A stretch of 36,778 bases of DNA from positions 1 to 36,778 of the forward strand of contig JACPWS010000028.1 in assembly GCA_016196925.1 (NCBI GenBank), in the 5' to 3' direction. The notes below the pieces were generated by a model. It saw nothing but the letters and a program-made list of their open reading frames with translations. It searched no databases and had not been told where the DNA came from. A program made the translations under genes and the position numbers. Numbering within the stretch: position 1 is the first letter of the stretch; each line of letters starts with the position of its first letter. Source of the DNA: Burkholderiales bacterium. Lineage in GTDB: Bacteria; Pseudomonadota; Gammaproteobacteria; Burkholderiales; Burkholderiaceae_D. Below, one piece after another: positions 11,822-16,977 of the stretch.

Positions 11822-12400
11822 ATGGGAACGAAGAAATTTGAAAACGTAAAAAAGCGCGCGTATCAAGATGTGCGCCCGGAAATCCGCACCGGCGACATTT
11901 TTTTCGCTTCCGGCAATTATGCGTTCAGTAAGATGATCAAGCATTTTTCCGATTCCATGCTGAGCCATGTCGGCTTCGTGTTTACCTGGAACGCGCGGGT
12001 CTTGCTGCTGGAAAGCGTGGAGGACGATGGCGTGCGCGCCGTGCCGCTCAGCCGTTATGTCAACGACTACAATAATTCCGGCGAACCCTATAACGGCCGC
12101 CTGTTTCTCGGCCGCTACAACGACGAGCTGAATATGGGCAAGGTCAGCCAGATGCTGGGCAAGGCGGCCGATATCCTGAACCGCAAATACGATGTCGATG
12201 AAATCACCGAAATGCTGGCGCGCGTCACCCTGGGCCTGGGGGTGCATAAAGACGACGATGCCTATCTCTGTTCCGAGTTCGTCGATGTCTGTTTCAAGGA
12301 AATCGGCATCCATTTCCCGCGCGACGACAAGGGCTTCATCTTCCCTGAGCATATCGCGGCCGATGGCAAGGTCGATCCCTTGTTCGAGATCGTCGCCTGA
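11822..12400 (+). CDS. Permuted NlpC/P60 (YiiX/YebB-like) cysteine hydrolase
   Basis: In this 192-residue protein the catalytic order is circularly permuted relative to papain-like NlpC/P60 enzymes. The His comes first (LSHVGFVF, about residue 44), an acidic residue follows (LLLESVEDDG) and the Cys is last (YLCSEFVD, about residue 148). That is the hallmark of the YiiX/YaeF/LRAT-like group. Members act on amide, thioester or lipid-linked bonds; the substrate here is unknown. No signal peptide is visible, so it is probably cytoplasmic. The ATG at 11822 follows GGGAGACCCAAA. Sibling RNA copy A begins about 90 bases after its stop. Confidence 0.8.
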   Translation: MGTKKFENVKKRAYQDVRPEIRTGDIFFASGNYAFSKMIKHFSDSMLSHVGFVFTWNARVLLLESVEDDGVRAVPLSRYVNDYNNSGEPYNGRLFLGRYNDELNMGKVSQMLGKAADILNRKYDVDEITEMLARVTLGLGVHKDDDAYLCSEFVDVCFKEIGIHFPRDDKGFIFPEHIAADGKVDPLFEIVA

Positions 12401-12489
12401 GCGAACCAGGCCGTCGCTGCCAGTGCAGAGCAGAATAGATGTTCAGATATATGAATTGGTGATGTTAGGTATACGAATAATAAAGATGA

Positions 12490-12586
12490 TTTATTTGCTG
12501 CACTGCGATAAAGTAGCACCTGTCTCCTCCAACACCTCCTAAGGTTTGGATTTAGCCCGCAACCTCAAGGTCGCGGGCTTTTTTTT
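12490..12586 (+). ncRNA. Candidate sibling sRNA, copy A
   Basis: This unit shares promoter-like and transcribed sequence with copies at 12708 and 13810. TTGGTG (12456-12461) and GAATAATAAAG (about 12475-12485) form the putative promoter. The core runs GCGATAAAGT, then CACCTGTCTCCTCC (12517-12530). A hairpin spans 12528-12550, with stem TCCAA(C)ACCT / AGGTTTGGA and loop CCTA. A terminator AGCCCGC...GCGGGCT (12554-12578) ends in eight T. The terminator loop differs from the other copies but keeps its stem, and itself forms ACCT-CA-AGGT. CACCTCCT matches the 16S anti-Shine-Dalgarno sequence. The transcription start is inferred. Confidence 0.62.
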
Positions 12587-12707
12587 GTCCATTTTATTTT
12601 TCAGAGGCGAGGGCGGCTGCTTAGCCTGAATGTTGATACTGCACGGAAATAAACGCGCACAGAAATATTCGTTTGGTGAATGACAGATATGTAAATATAT
12701 GTGTTTG

Positions 12708-12800
12708 TGAATGTGTTGCGGCGCGATATAGTGGCACCTGTCTCCTCCAACACCTTTTAGGTTTGGACTTAAGCCCGCAAACGCTGCGGGCTTTTTTTTT
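12708..12800 (+). ncRNA. Candidate sibling sRNA, copy B
   Basis: This is the second unit of the family. TTGGTG (12673-12678) with ATATAT (about 12695-12700) gives the putative promoter. GCGATATAGT precedes CACCTGTCTCCTCC (12735-12748). In the hairpin at 12746-12767 the stem TCCAA(C)ACCT / AGGTTTGGA is intact but the loop is TTT instead of CCTA, so structure is kept while sequence changes. The terminator AAGCCCGC...GCGGGCTT (12771-12792) runs into a T tract. It lies upstream of the solute-binding protein gene in the same direction. Confidence 0.6.
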
Positions 12801-12850
12801 GCGCGTTTTCATGGCGGGCGCCAAACGGTCAAGTTGAAATATTGCAACAT

Positions 12851-12878
12851 TTGACTAACGCTAAGCCTGCCATACACT
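12851..12878 (+). promoter_or_regulatory. Sigma-70-like promoter of the solute-binding protein gene
   Basis: TTGACT (12851-12856) and TACACT (12873-12878) are separated by 16 bp, 34 bp upstream of the ATG at 12912. This is the best match in the gap and lies downstream of the terminator of sRNA copy B, so the gene should be independently transcribed. Confidence 0.5.
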
Positions 12879-12911
12879 GGTCGGTAGCGATATAAGAACC
12901 TAGGGGGGCTT

Positions 12912-13667
12912 ATGGACTTCAGAAAACTCGCCGTACTCGCCTTGCTGTTTGTGCTGGGCGGCTTAGTCCAGGCGCGCGAGTTGCGTGCGATATTCAATAC
13001 CGACAAGCCGCCTTTTTCTTTCCGCGACGAGCGCGGCGTCAATACCGGCATAGAGGTGGACTTAATGCGCACCCTGCTGGCGCGGATGGGGCATACGCTG
13101 ACGGTGCGCACGGTTCCCAATAACCGCTTGCTGGTGGAGTTGATCACCGGGCAGGCCGATATCGCGGTGACGGTCAGCGGCAGCGACGATGAGCAACTGT
13201 TTTTTTCCGACGATTTCATCACTTTCGTGAATGTGGCCATCAGCAAGAAGTCGCGCAATGTGAGCATGCGCGGCATCGCCGATCTCGGCAACTACACTTT
13301 TGTGATCTGGCAGCGCGGCTGGCGCGACCTGGGGCCGGAATTCGAGTCCATCTACAAGCCCGACGCCAGTAACCGCTTCCGCTCGAATTATTACGAAGTC
13401 GACAGCCAGGAAGTGCAGTCGAGGATGTTCTGGCTTAACCGCACCGATCTGATCGTGGTCGACAAGACCATTTTCCAATGGTACCAGCGCATCCTGGCGA
13501 ACACGCTGAAAATAGACGAGGAAGTCGTGTATCACGATATCTTCCATTCCCGCACCGGCTTTCCGGTGGCGTTTCGCGACCGGAAGCTGCGTGACCGCTT
13601 CAACCAGGAATTGAGAAAAATCCGCGCGGACGGCACTTATCAAAAGATCTTAGACAAATACAAGTAG
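12912..13667 (+). CDS. Family-3 periplasmic solute-binding protein
   Basis: The 251-residue product has a signal peptide (MDFRKLAVLALLFVLGGLVQA). The SBP_bac_3 pattern then follows: TDKPPFSFRDERGVNTGIEVDLM early, then VELITGQADIAVTVSG, and RKIRADGTYQKILDKY at the C-terminus. The family binds amino acids or other small polar ligands in the periplasm. No ABC permease or ATPase is adjacent, so it may be an orphan binding protein or a sensing partner. The start ATG at 12912 follows a G-rich ribosome binding site (TAGGGGGGCTT). The gene is flanked on both sides by the sibling RNA units B and C, an arrangement that may reflect duplication around it. Confidence 0.85.
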   Translation: MDFRKLAVLALLFVLGGLVQARELRAIFNTDKPPFSFRDERGVNTGIEVDLMRTLLARMGHTLTVRTVPNNRLLVELITGQADIAVTVSGSDDEQLFFSDDFITFVNVAISKKSRNVSMRGIADLGNYTFVIWQRGWRDLGPEFESIYKPDASNRFRSNYYEVDSQEVQSRMFWLNRTDLIVVDKTIFQWYQRILANTLKIDEEVVYHDIFHSRTGFPVAFRDRKLRDRFNQELRKIRADGTYQKILDKYK

Positions 13668-13809
13668 GCTTGCCGGAGGGGGAGCCCGTAACCCGCTGAT
13701 TTTGCCTGGTTGACGCCATTACCAGGCCAGGATGTCGCCTGCATGCGGATACTGCAGCGGCTTTCAGTTATACGTTGATGGAATATCTGATATGCGAATA
13801 ATAAAGCAT

Positions 13810-13904
13810 ACAAATATGTCGCACCGCGATAAAGTAACACCTGTCTCCTCCAACACCTCCTAAGGTTTGGATTTAAGCCCGCAAACGCTGCGGGCTATTT
13901 TTTT
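13810..13904 (+). ncRNA. Candidate sibling sRNA, copy C
   Basis: This is the third unit. TTGATG (13775-13780), 17 bp, then ATAATA (13798-13803, within GAATAATAAAG as in copy A) gives the clearest promoter of the three. GCGATAAAGT leads to CACCTGTCTCCTCC (13838-13851), the hairpin at 13849-13871 (same stem and CCTA loop as copy A), and the terminator AAGCCCGC...GCGGGCT (13875-13896) with a T tract broken by one A. The terminator overlaps the last codons of allA on the other strand, so its transcript would be antisense to the allA 3' end. Confidence 0.62.
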
Positions 13905-14401
13905 GCCTGAAGACTTTCCAGCCAGCAGTCGCCCGTCAACACCACCTCATCGCAATTCTGCCCCGGCCCCAGCCTGTCCATCACGAGAAAATCACTGACT
14001 TTATGCAGCGCGATCAGCGGGTGGTGCCACACGCCTTTTGCGTAATTCACGCCCTGCCAGCCGCGGCAGATGAAAGCCTGCATCAGTGCCGGGTCGAATG
14101 CGCCGGGCGGCGCCACCACTACCAGATAGGCGTCGGCCGGGTCTTGCGTCAGCGGCACGAAGGCTTGGCTGGCTAGCGGGTGGCGCTCCATCACGCTGAT
14201 GGCCAGCGGCAGGCTGCGCGGTTGGGCGCGGAACAGGCTGAGTATGGTCTGGCCGTTACCAGTGTCGGCCGTGGCCAAGGCGTGATAGCGTTCGGTCGTG
14301 CCCTGGTTGATGGGAAAATGACGGGCGCCGTCCAGCATGATGACTTCGCCGTAGGGGGCGAACGCTTGCCGCGTCAGCGGTGTAATGGGCAGGGCCGGCA
14401 T
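13895..14401 (-). CDS. allA: Ureidoglycolate lyase
   Basis: The 168-residue product matches AllA throughout: ITPLTRQAFAPYGEVI at the N-terminus, FPINQGTTERYHAL (about 30-43), SVMERHPLASQAFVPL (about 69-84) and GVWHHPLIAL (about 122-131). It cleaves ureidoglycolate to glyoxylate and urea, the last step of allantoin degradation, in the cytoplasm. The ATG at 14401 is 3 nt after the alc stop, so translation is probably coupled. It is the last gene of the uraH-puuD-alc-allA operon. The stop TAG lies in the T tract of sRNA copy C on the opposite strand. Confidence 0.95.
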   Translation of the reverse strand: MPALPITPLTRQAFAPYGEVIMLDGARHFPINQGTTERYHALATADTGNGQTILSLFRAQPRSLPLAISVMERHPLASQAFVPLTQDPADAYLVVVAPPGAFDPALMQAFICRGWQGVNYAKGVWHHPLIALHKVSDFLVMDRLGPGQNCDEVVLTGDCWLESLQAKK

Positions 14402-14404
14402 ATC

Positions 14405-15418
14405 CTAACCTCCGGCCAGCCGGCTCCACAGGCGCAGGCGCGAGACGCCGCCGTCCGGGTAGATGTTGAAGCGGATGTGGGTGATCGCGCCCAGTTGGTG
14501 GATTTCGTTTTGGTAATAGTGCTGGTGATCCATCTGCAGCGCCTGTTCCGGCAGCAAGACTGGCCAGAACATCGACTGGGTGATCAGCGACGTCTCGGTG
14601 CCGCCGTGCATGGCGGCCGCCTGCAGCATGCAGCCGGCCGGGTAATTGCCCTTGAAGTGGCAGGTATCGACTTCGATCTTTTCCACCAGGCCGGGATGGG
14701 CCAGCGCGATGAGGCACCAGTCGTTGCCCGGTTCGCGCCGGCGCCGGGTTTCCCAGCCGTCGCCCATGTTGCGGCCGCGCCCCGGCAGCAACAGCTTGGA
14801 TGCGTGCCCGAAATGCTGGTTATTCGTCGCCACCACGTAGCCGCCGTTTTCCATCGCGATCAGGTCGAACAAGCCATGCGGCTCGGCGGCCCAGTCGGCT
14901 TGCGGCTGTGCGTACACGCGCAAACGGGCCACGCCGCCATCGGGGTAGATGTTCAGGCGCACATGGGTGTAAGTCTGCGCGTTGTGGATTTCGTGGTAGT
15001 GATGGCTATTCCCCTGCAAATTCACCGAGGGCAGCACCGTGTGCCAGACCGTTTCTTCGTCCGGCGCACCGGCGTCGATGCAGGCCGCTTCCAGCGCGGC
15101 GGCCGGCGGGTAATTGCCGCTGAAATGGCTGGTGTCGAGATCGACCCCGCGCAGCACGCCGGGCTTGGCCAGCCGGACTATGCACCAGTCGTGGCCGTTG
15201 ACGCGCTTGCGGCGCGATTCCCAGCCATCCATCCATTTGCCGTTGGCGTCGTACTTGCCGGGGATGAAGACGGCTGGCTCGGGATTCAGCATGCGCGCCA
15301 TGTCGGCAAAGAAATCGTCGCTGCAAGCCAGGGTGCGCGCGCCGAGCCGGGCGTCGGCCAGGTTCGGGTAGCGCCGCGCATAGTCGGGGGCCTTGTGGTC
15401 CAGGGTGGGGAGGGCCAT
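14405..15418 (-). CDS. alc: Allantoicase
   Basis: The 337-residue enzyme hydrolyses allantoate to ureidoglycolate and urea. The family's internal duplication is plain. Repeat 1 has [23 protein letters not shown] and [11 protein letters not shown]; repeat 2 has [23 protein letters not shown] and [11 protein letters not shown]. Each repeat ends in a similar [11 protein letters not shown] or [11 protein letters not shown] strand. The length is typical. It starts 15 nt after the puuD stop, with GGAAAG upstream of the ATG at 15418, and is followed by allA after 3 nt. It is the committed step producing the urea-releasing intermediates of this operon. Confidence 0.96.
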
Positions 15419-15433
15419 GTGCTTTCCTTTTTT

Positions 15434-16624
15434 CTATTTTCCCGCCGCGCCGGCCTCGACCCAGCGGGCGATGATGGCGCGTTCTTCTTCGGTGATATGG
15501 GTCAGATTGCCGAGCGGCATCAGCTTTTGCTGCACGACTTGCTGGTAAATCAGCTGCGCCTTTTCCTGGATCAGGGCCGGGCTATCCAGCACTACGCCCT
15601 TGGCCGGGAATTCCATCAGACTCGGGTGGGCCGAGTGGCATTGCACGCAGCGCGCCTGTATCACTTGCTGCACCTGGGCGAACTGGGCCGCGCCCAGCTT
15701 GCTTCCCTTGGAAGTCGCCGGCGCCGGCACACTCCAGGCCGCCACTGTGGCCAGCAGCGCGACTGCCAGCACAGGCAGCACCCACTGGTTCTTGCCCTTG
15801 TGGCGCAGGATGAAAAACTGCCGTATCAAGACCCCGGCCAGCATGATAAGCGCCAGCACCAGCCAGTTCTGTGGATGAGTATAGGTCATGCTGTAATGAT
15901 TCGACAGCATGGCGAACAGTACCGGCAGCGTGAAATAAGTATTGTGCACGCTGCGCTGTTTGCCGCGTTGGCCGTGCACCGGATCGACAGTGTCGCCGGC
16001 GCGCAGCGCCGCCACCACCTTGCGCTGGCCGGGGATGATCCAGAAAAACACGTTGGCGCTCATGCTGGTGGCCAGCATCGCGCCTATCAGCAGGAAGGCG
16101 GCCCGGCCGGAAAACAGATGGCAGGCGGCCCAGCTGGCGGCAAGCACGTAGGCCGCCACCAGCACCGATAGCAGTTTTTCATTCTTGCCGAAAACGCGGC
16201 ACAGCAAGTCGTACACCAGCCAGCCCAGGCCGAGGAAACCGATTGCCAGCGCGATCGCCAGGCTAGGCGTCAGGCTGGCCACGGCCGGGTCGATCAGATA
16301 GGTCCTGGCGTTGAACAGGTACATCAGGCTGAACAAGGCCAGACCCGACAGCCAGGTGCTATACGATTCCCAGTAAAACCAGTGCAAATCTTGCGGCAGG
16401 GCCGGCGGCGCGCCCAGGTATTTTTGCGGGTTGTAAAAGCCGCCGCCGTGCACCGCCCACAATTCGCCGCCCACGCCTTGCTGGCGCAGTTGCGGGTCGC
16501 TCGGCGGCGTCAGATGATTGTCGAGCCAGACGAAATAAAACGACGAGCCTATCCAGGCGATCGCTACGATCACATGCAGCCAGCGCAACAGCAAGTTGGC
16601 CCAGTCGAGCAGATAGGCTTCCAT
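15434..16624 (-). CDS. puuD: Membrane-bound cytochrome c-fused urate oxidase
   Basis: PuuD oxidises urate to 5-hydroxyisourate at the inner membrane and passes electrons to its own cytochrome c domain rather than to oxygen directly. The 396-residue chain has an N-terminal multi-helix membrane domain (about residues 10-300, with LLRWLHVIVAIAWIGSSFYF near the start). A C-terminal cytochrome c has C-V-Q-C-H near residue 338 and a candidate axial Met in QKLMPLGN. The start is ATG 16624, after GAGGAAG; the ATG overlaps the uraH stop (TAATG), so the frame extension upstream to 16873 is a shadow of uraH. It replaces the soluble uricases, which are absent here. Confidence 0.95.
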   Translation of the reverse strand: MEAYLLDWANLLLRWLHVIVAIAWIGSSFYFVWLDNHLTPPSDPQLRQQGVGGELWAVHGGGFYNPQKYLGAPPALPQDLHWFYWESYSTWLSGLALFSLMYLFNARTYLIDPAVASLTPSLAIALAIGFLGLGWLVYDLLCRVFGKNEKLLSVLVAAYVLAASWAACHLFSGRAAFLLIGAMLATSMSANVFFWIIPGQRKVVAALRAGDTVDPVHGQRGKQRSVHNTYFTLPVLFAMLSNHYSMTYTHPQNWLVLALIMLAGVLIRQFFILRHKGKNQWVLPVLAVALLATVAAWSVPAPATSKGSKLGAAQFAQVQQVIQARCVQCHSAHPSLMEFPAKGVVLDSPALIQEKAQLIYQQVVQQKLMPLGNLTHITEEERAIIARWVEAGAAGK

Positions 16625-16977
16625 TAACTTCCTCGATAGGTGGAATAGCTCCACGGCGTCGCCACCAGCGGCACGTGGTAATGGGCGCCGGGATCGGCCA
16701 CGCCGAAGCGCAGCGTGACGATGCCGAGAAACGCCGGCTGCGGCAAGGCTGCGTCCAGGCTGCCGAAATACGTGCCGAGGTCGAAATCGAGTTCGTAGAT
16801 GCCGGCCAGCAAAGCTGCGCCTTCCAGCAGCGGCTGCGCGCAACGGCCGTCGGGGTCGGTGACGCGCTGGCACAGCAGCGTGCGCTGCTGCGCCTCCAGC
16901 CGGTACAGCGCCAACGCCACCCCGGCGCCCGGTTTGCCGTGCGCCGTGTCCAGTACATGTGTGGTCAAGCGTCCCAT
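16624..16977 (-). CDS. uraH: 5-hydroxyisourate hydrolase
   Basis: This 117-residue transthyretin-related protein hydrolyses 5-hydroxyisourate to OHCU. It shows LTTHVLDTAHGKPG at the N-terminus (catalytic His7), the HYHVPLVATPWSYSTYRGS end with the diagnostic Y-R-G-S C-terminal tetrapeptide, and the usual length. No periplasmic signal is present, so it is cytoplasmic. The ATG at 16977 is preceded by AGGGGATAA. It is the first gene of the minus-strand urate operon, and its promoter region holds the palindrome at 17011-17022. Confidence 0.96.
   Translation of the reverse strand: MGRLTTHVLDTAHGKPGAGVALALYRLEAQQRTLLCQRVTDPDGRCAQPLLEGAALLAGIYELDFDLGTYFGSLDAALPQPAFLGIVTLRFGVADPGAHYHVPLVATPWSYSTYRGS

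What the first reader, a model, noticed from the sequence alone, without database searches (positions are those of the whole stretch)
12456..13904. Three sibling ~95-nt RNA genes with CU-rich anti-Shine-Dalgarno motifs
Three copies, in the same direction within 1.45 kb, share an ordered unit. It comprises TTGRTG 60-62 nt upstream of the core, GAATAATAAAG or ATATAT as -10, GCGATAAAGT (GCGATATAGT in copy B), then CACCTGTCTCCTCC identical in all. A hairpin TCCAA(C)ACCT/AGGTTTGGA and a GCCCGC/GCGGGC terminator follow. Differences fall in loops (CCTA versus TTT; AAACGCT versus AACCTCAAGGTC) while stems are kept, which is the pattern of selected RNA structure rather than a copied terminator alone. 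CTCCTCC and CACCTCCT mimic the 16S 3' end, so these RNAs could block ribosome binding sites, like other CU-rich sibling sRNAs. I do not recognise the family.
Basis: partly seen in the sequence, partly recalled or inferred. Interest (0 to 1): 0.82.

Follow-up and report, generated by a model that had tools for sequence, protein, structure and literature searches.

The report
Tandem toxic-family small RNA genes
Three neighbouring genes each make a tiny RNA of an already known betaproteobacterial family that probably switches off protein production from other genes, and the DNA in front of such genes suggests that the family is tied to the cell's carbon-storage sensor.

Summary
The three copies are real and under selection, but not an unknown family: all align end to end to Rfam RF02278, "Betaproteobacteria toxic small RNA" (55.6, 48.7, 51.7 bits; cut-off 50), the published double-hairpin sRNAs of Burkholderia. 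The genome is Undibacterium-like. GCGATAAAGT holds the likely -10, so the RNA is about 65 nt. Copies stand in tandem in 27 of 39 genomes of the genus, unlike Burkholderia.

New here, by comparison only: (1) the upstream module recurs beside one LysR-type regulator gene in 71 of 80 named loci and 17 of 60 family genomes. (2) A palindrome matching the operator core of PhaR, the PHB-granule repressor (TGCRNYGCA), lies upstream of RF02278 in 27 of 40 genomes with PhaR and 0 of 20 without. The window's copies carry it only degenerate (1, 1, 2 mismatches), and RF02278 also occurs without PhaR.

Best reading: LysR- and carbon-storage-controlled sibling sRNAs that block ribosome binding sites. Identity is near certain; the control is inferred.

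The parts
12519..12586 (+). sRNA copy A (RF02278), ~65-68 nt; start inferred
   Evidence: Rfam match 12521-12586, 55.6 bits; fold z -5.08; -10 placement
12737..12800 (+). sRNA copy B, ~64 nt; start inferred
   Evidence: Rfam match 12739-12799, 48.7 bits, 1.3 under the cut-off; fold z -4.31
13840..13904 (+). sRNA copy C (RF02278), ~65 nt; start inferred
   Evidence: Rfam match 13842-13903, 51.7 bits; fold z -4.85
12446..12472 (+). Upstream module of copy A: boxes GATAT 12446-12450 and GGTAT 12468-12472; T12450-N11-A12462
   Evidence: R1 64.5 bits at 12441-12520
12664..12690 (+). Upstream module of copy B: AATAT 12664-12668 and GATAT 12686-12690; T12668-N11-A12680
   Evidence: R1 53.8 bits
13767..13793 (+). 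Upstream module of copy C: GTTAT 13767-13771 and GATAT 13789-13793; T13771-N11-A13783
   Evidence: R1 64.1 bits
12509..12514 (+). Likely -10 of copy A, TAAAGT
12727..12732 (+). Likely -10 of copy B, TATAGT
13830..13835 (+). Likely -10 of copy C, TAAAGT
12499..12507 (.). PhaR-like palindrome, copy A: TGCACTGCG, 1 mismatch to TGCRNYGCA
12717..12725 (.). PhaR-like palindrome, copy B: TGCGGCGCG, 1 mismatch
13820..13828 (.). PhaR-like palindrome, copy C: CGCACCGCG, 2 mismatches (weak)
12912..13667 (+). Gene between copies B and C: extracellular solute-binding protein family 3; probably a neighbour, not part of the system
   Evidence: PF00497 E 2.3e-19; not found in the 19 other array loci searched

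Best explanation
Three tandem genes of the RF02278 double-hairpin ('toxic') sRNA family, each its own transcription unit of ~65 nt. SHOWN by comparison: family identity; two hairpins with compensatory changes; an invariant unpaired UCUCCUC; a conserved -10-like hexamer just upstream; an upstream two-box module of the kind bound by LysR-type activators; and, in relatives, a palindrome matching the PhaR operator core. INFERRED: the RNAs pair through UCUCCUCC (and CACCUCCU in the first hairpin of copies A and C) with Shine-Dalgarno regions of transport and catabolism mRNAs and block translation; a LysR-type regulator encoded on contig C15 of this assembly activates them; and PhaR, drawn away when polyhydroxybutyrate (PHB) granules form, relieves repression, so that carbon-replete, growth-limited cells damp further uptake. 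My estimates: family 0.98; RBS pairing 0.8; promoter placement 0.85; LysR input 0.55; PhaR input for the family 0.55 and for these three degenerate sites 0.35.
For: RF02278 alignments of all three copies; covariation and invariant CU segment; folds. Upstream module conserved; its model R1 finds the three copies plus one strong other place in this genome, beside a LysR gene, and the same place in 21 genus loci, 17 of 60 family genomes and 71 of 80 named LysR loci. TGCRNYGCA upstream: 17 of 17 leader-type and 14 of 29 other-genus copies exact, 57 of 63 genus short-type within one mismatch against 11.9 in shuffles, 27 of 40 genomes with PhaR against 0 of 20 without (shuffles 1.1 and 0.15). Exact cores upstream of the three phasin-domain frames of this genome. 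Literature on relatives: RBS pairing, growth effect and higher level in glucose medium than in starvation (PMC5688073).
Against: No transcript, protein binding or target was measured here. The window's PhaR-like sites have 1, 1 and 2 mismatches. In the order sample RF02278 and PhaR are not associated (70 both, 28 RF02278 only, 65 PhaR only, 37 neither; Fisher 0.29), so PhaR cannot be needed for the family. The PhaR-less promoters look alike and AT-rich, so they may be few lineages; with one mismatch allowed 7 of these 20 also match (shuffles 2.7). Only 12 of 60 further family copies have the exact core. No exact core lies in 1.5 kb around phaR of this genome. Nine of 80 LysR loci lack the module, 10 of 45 family genomes with the regulator have no R1 hit, and 11 R1 hits in the genus lie elsewhere.
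Confidence: 0.68

Rival explanations
1. The same sRNAs, but the palindrome and the boxes belong to other regulators; neither PhaR nor the LysR protein acts on them.
For: Binding is untested; the module beside the LysR gene could be the site of a third regulator acting on both; the window's palindromes are degenerate; RF02278 occurs without PhaR in 28 of 200 order genomes.
Against: The palindrome is absent as an exact match in 20 of 20 PhaR-less carriers and present in 27 of 40 PhaR-bearing ones, and is first of 64 palindromes of its form in each sRNA set tested.
Confidence: 0.35
2. The RNAs act as general translation inhibitors (a true toxin), not as regulators of defined mRNAs.
For: The family is named for inhibiting E. 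coli growth (PMC5688073 and PMC4603805, passages; the original paper was not held); copies A and C carry CACCUCCT, recalled as the core of the 16S 3' end.
Against: Reviews report effects of NcS27 on particular substrates and targets (PMC10987360, passages); the related S17S of Bordetella hardly impaired E. coli growth and has defined targets (PMC11722255, passages); copy B lacks CACCTCCT; many copies are kept per genome.
Confidence: 0.1
3. Longer ~95-nt primary RNAs start near 12490 and are processed to the short form, as in ncS27.
For: Herbaspirillum predictions of 93-115 nt (PMC7011215, passages); ncS27 is 92 nt and can be processed (PMC5688073); a 97-nt form folds with z -3.83.
Against: Conservation puts a -10 at -12 to -7, and the leader-type promoters that resemble ncS27 lack the GATAT module.
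Confidence: 0.12
4. Only copied terminators with decaying surroundings, no sRNA genes.
For: Terminators of the copies are similar, and a 20-nt stretch further upstream is also repeated (12624-12643 and 13737-13756).
Against: Promoter module, -10, CU-rich segment and covarying stems are conserved over many genera.
Confidence: 0.02

Closest known systems
Rfam RF02278 / double-hairpin sRNAs ncS03, ncS05, ncS27, ncS62 of Burkholderia cenocepacia; Hsnc59, 63, 86, 107 of Herbaspirillum seropedicae
   Same: Sequence, two hairpins, CU-rich unpaired stretch, short length, several copies per genome; three of the four Burkholderia copies also share an upstream motif (Fig. S3, not seen)
   Different: Burkholderia copies are said not to be in tandem (PMC5688073, passage); here three lie within 1.4 kb, and the LysR and PhaR links are proposed here
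S17 / S17S of Bordetella pertussis
   Same: 27-nt start of S17S conserved through Betaproteobacteria and close to bdhR1/RF02278 (PMC11722255, passages)
   Different: S17S is processed from a longer RNA and was hardly toxic in E. coli (PMC11722255, passages)
NmsRa/NmsRb (RcoF; NgncR_162/163) of Neisseria, RF02877
   Same: Tandem sibling sRNAs with CU-rich unpaired stretches that pair with RBS regions (PMC5688073, passage)
   Different: Copy A scores 29.9 bits against a cut-off of 52
MmgR of Sinorhizobium meliloti, RF00519
   Same: Short sRNA under negative control by AniA (PhaR); linked to PHB (PMC8401924, section 15)
   Different: Copies A and B score 23.3 and 23.5 bits against a cut-off of 41; no phasin target shown here
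AbcR1/AbcR2 of Sinorhizobium meliloti with LsrB
   Same: Tandem sibling sRNAs; for AbcR1 a LysR regulator acts at T-N11-A upstream of a sigma70 promoter (PMC8844928, passages)
   Different: RNAs of 114-121 nt, and the regulator gene flanks the sRNAs; here it lies on another contig

Membership tests
RF02278 Betaproteobacteria_toxic_sRNA | Score at or above Rfam's gathering cut-off of 50 bits, copies A and C | tested here: met
   55.6 and 51.7 bits, model positions 1-64
RF02278 Betaproteobacteria_toxic_sRNA | Same cut-off, copy B | tested here: not met
   48.7 bits, 1.3 under; aligned over 1-64. Called a sibling by homology to A and C, not filed by score
RF02278 Betaproteobacteria_toxic_sRNA | Two hairpins after an unpaired CU-rich 5' end | tested here: met
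RF02278 Betaproteobacteria_toxic_sRNA | Growth inhibition when cloned in E. coli | not testable with these tools
   Published for relatives, seen only through citing papers (PMC5688073, PMC4603805, passages)
NmsR, RF02877 | Score at or above 52 bits | tested here: not met
   29.9 bits for copy A; no match listed for B or C
MmgR/suhB, RF00519 | Score at or above 41 bits | tested here: not met
   23.3 (A) and 23.5 (B) bits; no match listed for C
PhaR regulon | PhaR encoded in the genome | tested here: met
   PF07879 at G000:C32:58222-58401, E 1.8e-30
PhaR regulon | Exact TGCRNYGCA core at the three window promoters | tested here: not met
   1, 1 and 2 mismatches
PhaR regulon | Operator present in relatives that have PhaR and absent in those without | tested here: met
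   27 of 40 against 0 of 20, exact core; relatedness not corrected
PhaR regulon | PhaR binding and derepression on loss | not testable with these tools
   needs a bench test
LysR-type regulon | T-N11-A near -65 and the same module at the regulator's divergent promoter | tested here: met
   the -65 rule is recalled
LysR-type regulon | Binding and activation by that protein | not testable with these tools
   needs a bench test

The most novel reading that the evidence does not exclude
The RF02278 'toxic' sRNAs, whose control and purpose are open, are the RNA arm of the PHB-storage regulon in PhaR-bearing Burkholderiales: PhaR represses them until granules draw it away; and in Oxalobacteraceae and relatives one LysR-type regulator, which shares its promoter module with them, accompanied their expansion into tandem and dispersed sets of up to 17 copies.
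Probability: 0.45. Interest if true: 0.72.

Novelty: new member of a known kind. Interest (0 to 1): 0.46.

Why it matters
The RNAs themselves are ordinary members of a known family. What would matter is their control: PMC5688073 (passages) says that what makes such sRNAs accumulate in Burkholderia is unknown and finds the double-hairpin RNAs more abundant in glucose medium than in starvation. A PhaR operator would tie a conserved set of RBS-blocking RNAs to carbon storage, in parallel with MmgR of alphaproteobacteria, and one deletion strain would test it. My ten paper searches showed no paper linking RF02278 to PhaR or to a LysR regulator; only openly licensed papers are held, and Kimelman 2012, Sass 2019 (NcS27) and the motif figure S3 of PMC5688073 were not seen.

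Tried and rejected
Membership of other Rfam families listed (NmsR, Trp leader, suhB/MmgR, anti-hemB, SorY, asX2, Bp2_287): all under their cut-offs. Pairing of the sRNA with phasin starts, as proposed for MmgR: duplex energies of -9.8 (L240), -5.9 (L241) and -3.6 kcal/mol (L242, start guessed) are unremarkable beside other frames of the same call; no proper control, so not used. PhaR site at phaR itself: no exact core in the 1.5 kb taken. Co-occurrence of RF02278 and PhaR: the same 56 of 60 genomes in the family sample but no association in the order sample (Fisher 0.29), so not used as support. The solute-binding gene between B and C as a partner: not found at E 1e-10 in the 19 array loci searched.

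Full report
1. What was checked. The region 12456-13904 holds three same-strand copies of one unit. A scan of the whole window against Rfam found RF02278, Betaproteobacteria_toxic_sRNA, for copies A and C; a permissive scan of 12400-14000 added copy B, 1.3 bits below the cut-off (55.6, 48.7 and 51.7 bits for A, B, C). The genome has a fourth copy over the cut-off at C31 (60.4 bits) and four weak matches of 17.9-28.7 bits that I do not count, because 11 of 14 control genomes also give weak matches at that loose threshold. The nearest named relatives of a gene of this genome are Undibacterium.

2. Structure. The three ~65-nt RNAs fold into the same two hairpins, z = -5.08, -4.31 and -4.85. In 98 distinct sequences TCTCCTC (positions 3-9) is invariant. 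Of 11 named pairs 5 change on both sides; 99.3% of cells pair, against 92.7% in shuffles and at most 47.6% when partners are slid.

3. Promoter. Anchored on TGTCTCC, 77 short-type copies (63 of them from the genus) share GATAT-like boxes at -75 and -53, AT at -59/-58, an A-rich stretch at -45 to -41, and TAaAgT or TATAGT at -12 to -7 (64 aligned). I take the last as the -10; it puts the start at about the first base of the Rfam model, as in the mapped Burkholderia relatives of 57-67 nt (PMC5688073, section 6 read). A second class, with a leader of roughly 30-55 nt by my reading and no GATAT boxes, fronts the orphan copy L001 and 16 related sequences; it recalls ncS27, which is 92 nt and can be processed to a short form (PMC5688073).

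4. Arrangement. All 39 genomes of the genus that were sampled have a match at E 1e-4 or better, 29 over the cut-off; 27 of 39 have two or more within 2.5 kb on one strand, 17 of them three or more. The Burkholderia paper says its copies are not in tandem and compares them with the tandem NmsR of Neisseria (PMC5688073, passage). In the family sample 56 of 60 genomes have a match, up to 17 in one genome. In 10 of 19 array loci of the genus the array lies near ureidoglycolate lyase and allantoicase genes, as in the window.

5. The LysR link. A sequence-only model, R1, of -82 to -1 finds in this genome the three copies, one strong other place (41.1 bits, E 4.6e-10), one weak (16.4 bits, E 0.023) and one at E 9.9. 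The strong place lies between a LysR-type gene (HTH_1, LysR_substrate) and a divergent 102-codon frame without a Pfam match, followed by a DUF2798 gene. The regulator is not named by NCBIfam: BsrA 216 bits against a cut-off of 480, LeuO 159 against 262; the nearest solved structures are LysR-type regulatory proteins (E 1.6e-48). Of 35 further R1 places taken from the genus, 20 hold this gene (21 with L091); four are sRNA copies, and 11 lie elsewhere, some before short secreted- or membrane-like frames. In the family sample R1 hits lie 32-153 nt from the LysR start in 17 of 60 genomes. In 80 named LysR loci, 71 have the module upstream, with 16.4-53.5 bits; the nine without are L179-L182 and L184-L188. 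R1 and the regulator co-occur in the family sample (35 both, 2 R1 only, 10 regulator only, 13 neither; Fisher 1.5e-5), and two or more RF02278 copies occur in 42 of 43 genomes with the regulator at 65% identity or more, against 2 of 17 others (Fisher 3.9e-11). These values ignore relatedness. T-N11-A centred at -65 is the usual LysR activator position (recalled). A third regulator acting on both places is not excluded.

6. The PhaR link. At -22 to -14 the genus's short promoters carry a near-palindrome that resembles the PhaR consensus YTKNTGCRNYGCANMAR (PMC12849132, passages) and the motif TG[N]TGC[N]3GCAA in the PhbF footprint (PMC3206438, passages). In 63 genus short copies 57 are within one mismatch of the 9-base core (shuffles 11.9), 12 exact (1.1), and 52 within one mismatch of the PhbF motif (1.4); in 29 other-genus copies only 2 fit the PhbF motif (0.6), though 14 have the exact core (0.6). 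Exact cores: 17 of 17 leader-type, 17 of 67 non-leader Undibacterium, 14 of 29 other-genus upstreams, and 75 of 80 LysR intergenic stretches; background 0.263 per kb in the LysR loci; first of 64 palindromes of the same form in each of the three sRNA sets. In 60 further family copies 12 are exact, some near -75 and some near -22. In this genome exact cores lie upstream of all three phasin-domain frames (L240 one, L241 two, L242 one, with one more just inside the frame as I started it), and none in 1.5 kb around phaR. The window's own sites have 1, 1 and 2 mismatches.

7. A natural test. Outside the window's family, 93 of the order genomes sampled carry RF02278, 65 with PhaR and 28 without. I took one copy from 40 and 20 of them. 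The exact core is within 120 nt upstream in 27 of 40 and 0 of 20 (Fisher 1.5e-7); shuffles give 1.1 and 0.15, and the next-best palindrome scores 1 in the PhaR-bearing set. Three or four of the 27 have it only beyond -100, an odd place for an operator. Grouped by GTDB family it is 12 of 16 against 0 of 10 (Fisher 2e-4), two families being in both groups. Against it: with one mismatch allowed the PhaR-less set has 7 of 20 (shuffles 2.7) and is AT-richer (GC 0.39 against 0.47); these promoters look alike, so they may be few lineages. RF02278 and PhaR as such are not associated in the order sample (70 both, 28 and 65 single, 37 neither; Fisher 0.29), although in the family sample they occur in the same 56 of 60 genomes. 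PhaR can therefore be one input, not the reason for the family.

8. How it most likely works. RBS pairing is published for Burkholderia relatives: 55-80% of predicted interactions lie at starts, ncS27 overexpression slows growth, and the RNAs rise in biofilm, starvation and glucose medium (PMC5688073, section 6 and passages; PMC10987360, passages). PhaR leaves its operators for nascent granules during PHB synthesis (PMC12849132, passages). The model that joins these: PHB formation frees the promoters, the LysR regulator drives them where present, and the RNAs damp uptake and catabolism. Two alphaproteobacterial precedents support each half by analogy only: MmgR, under negative control by AniA/PhaR (PMC8401924, section 15), and AbcR1, driven by LsrB at T-N11-A (PMC8844928, passages).

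9. Verdict. The finding is a good catch of a known family in a tandem form. The PhaR statement concerns the family more than these three genes, whose sites are degenerate; on re-checking, the lack of association in the order sample made me lower the PhaR and novel-case odds by 0.05 each.

Noticed in passing
window 13895-16873, - strand: Ureidoglycolate lyase, allantoicase and urate oxidase genes, a uric-acid breakdown cluster; its first two genes lie near the sRNA array in 10 of 19 Undibacterium array loci.
   Followed up: partly
window 12624-12643 and 13737-13756: A 20-nt stretch, 85% alike, sits ahead of copies B and C, as if the array grew by duplication of a longer segment.
   Followed up: no
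L091 712-1517, - strand: A 102-codon frame without a Pfam match and a DUF2798 gene stand divergent to the LysR gene, behind the same promoter module as the sRNAs.
   Followed up: partly
L107, L111, L114, L119, L120: R1-like promoters also precede other short frames (80 and 116-117 codons) in some Undibacterium genomes, with TGCRNYGCA cores in or just after the module in several: perhaps a wider regulon.
   Followed up: no
G061, G092, G095, G040, G043: RF02278 reaches 17, 15, 14, 12 and 11 copies in single genomes, more than the three to five reported for Burkholderia (PMC5688073).
   Followed up: no
L240 near 445: The start region of an ABC-transporter-like frame near a phasin gene (GGGAGGGGGG) pairs with the sRNA 5' part at -17.6 kcal/mol; a single case without a proper control.
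   Followed up: no
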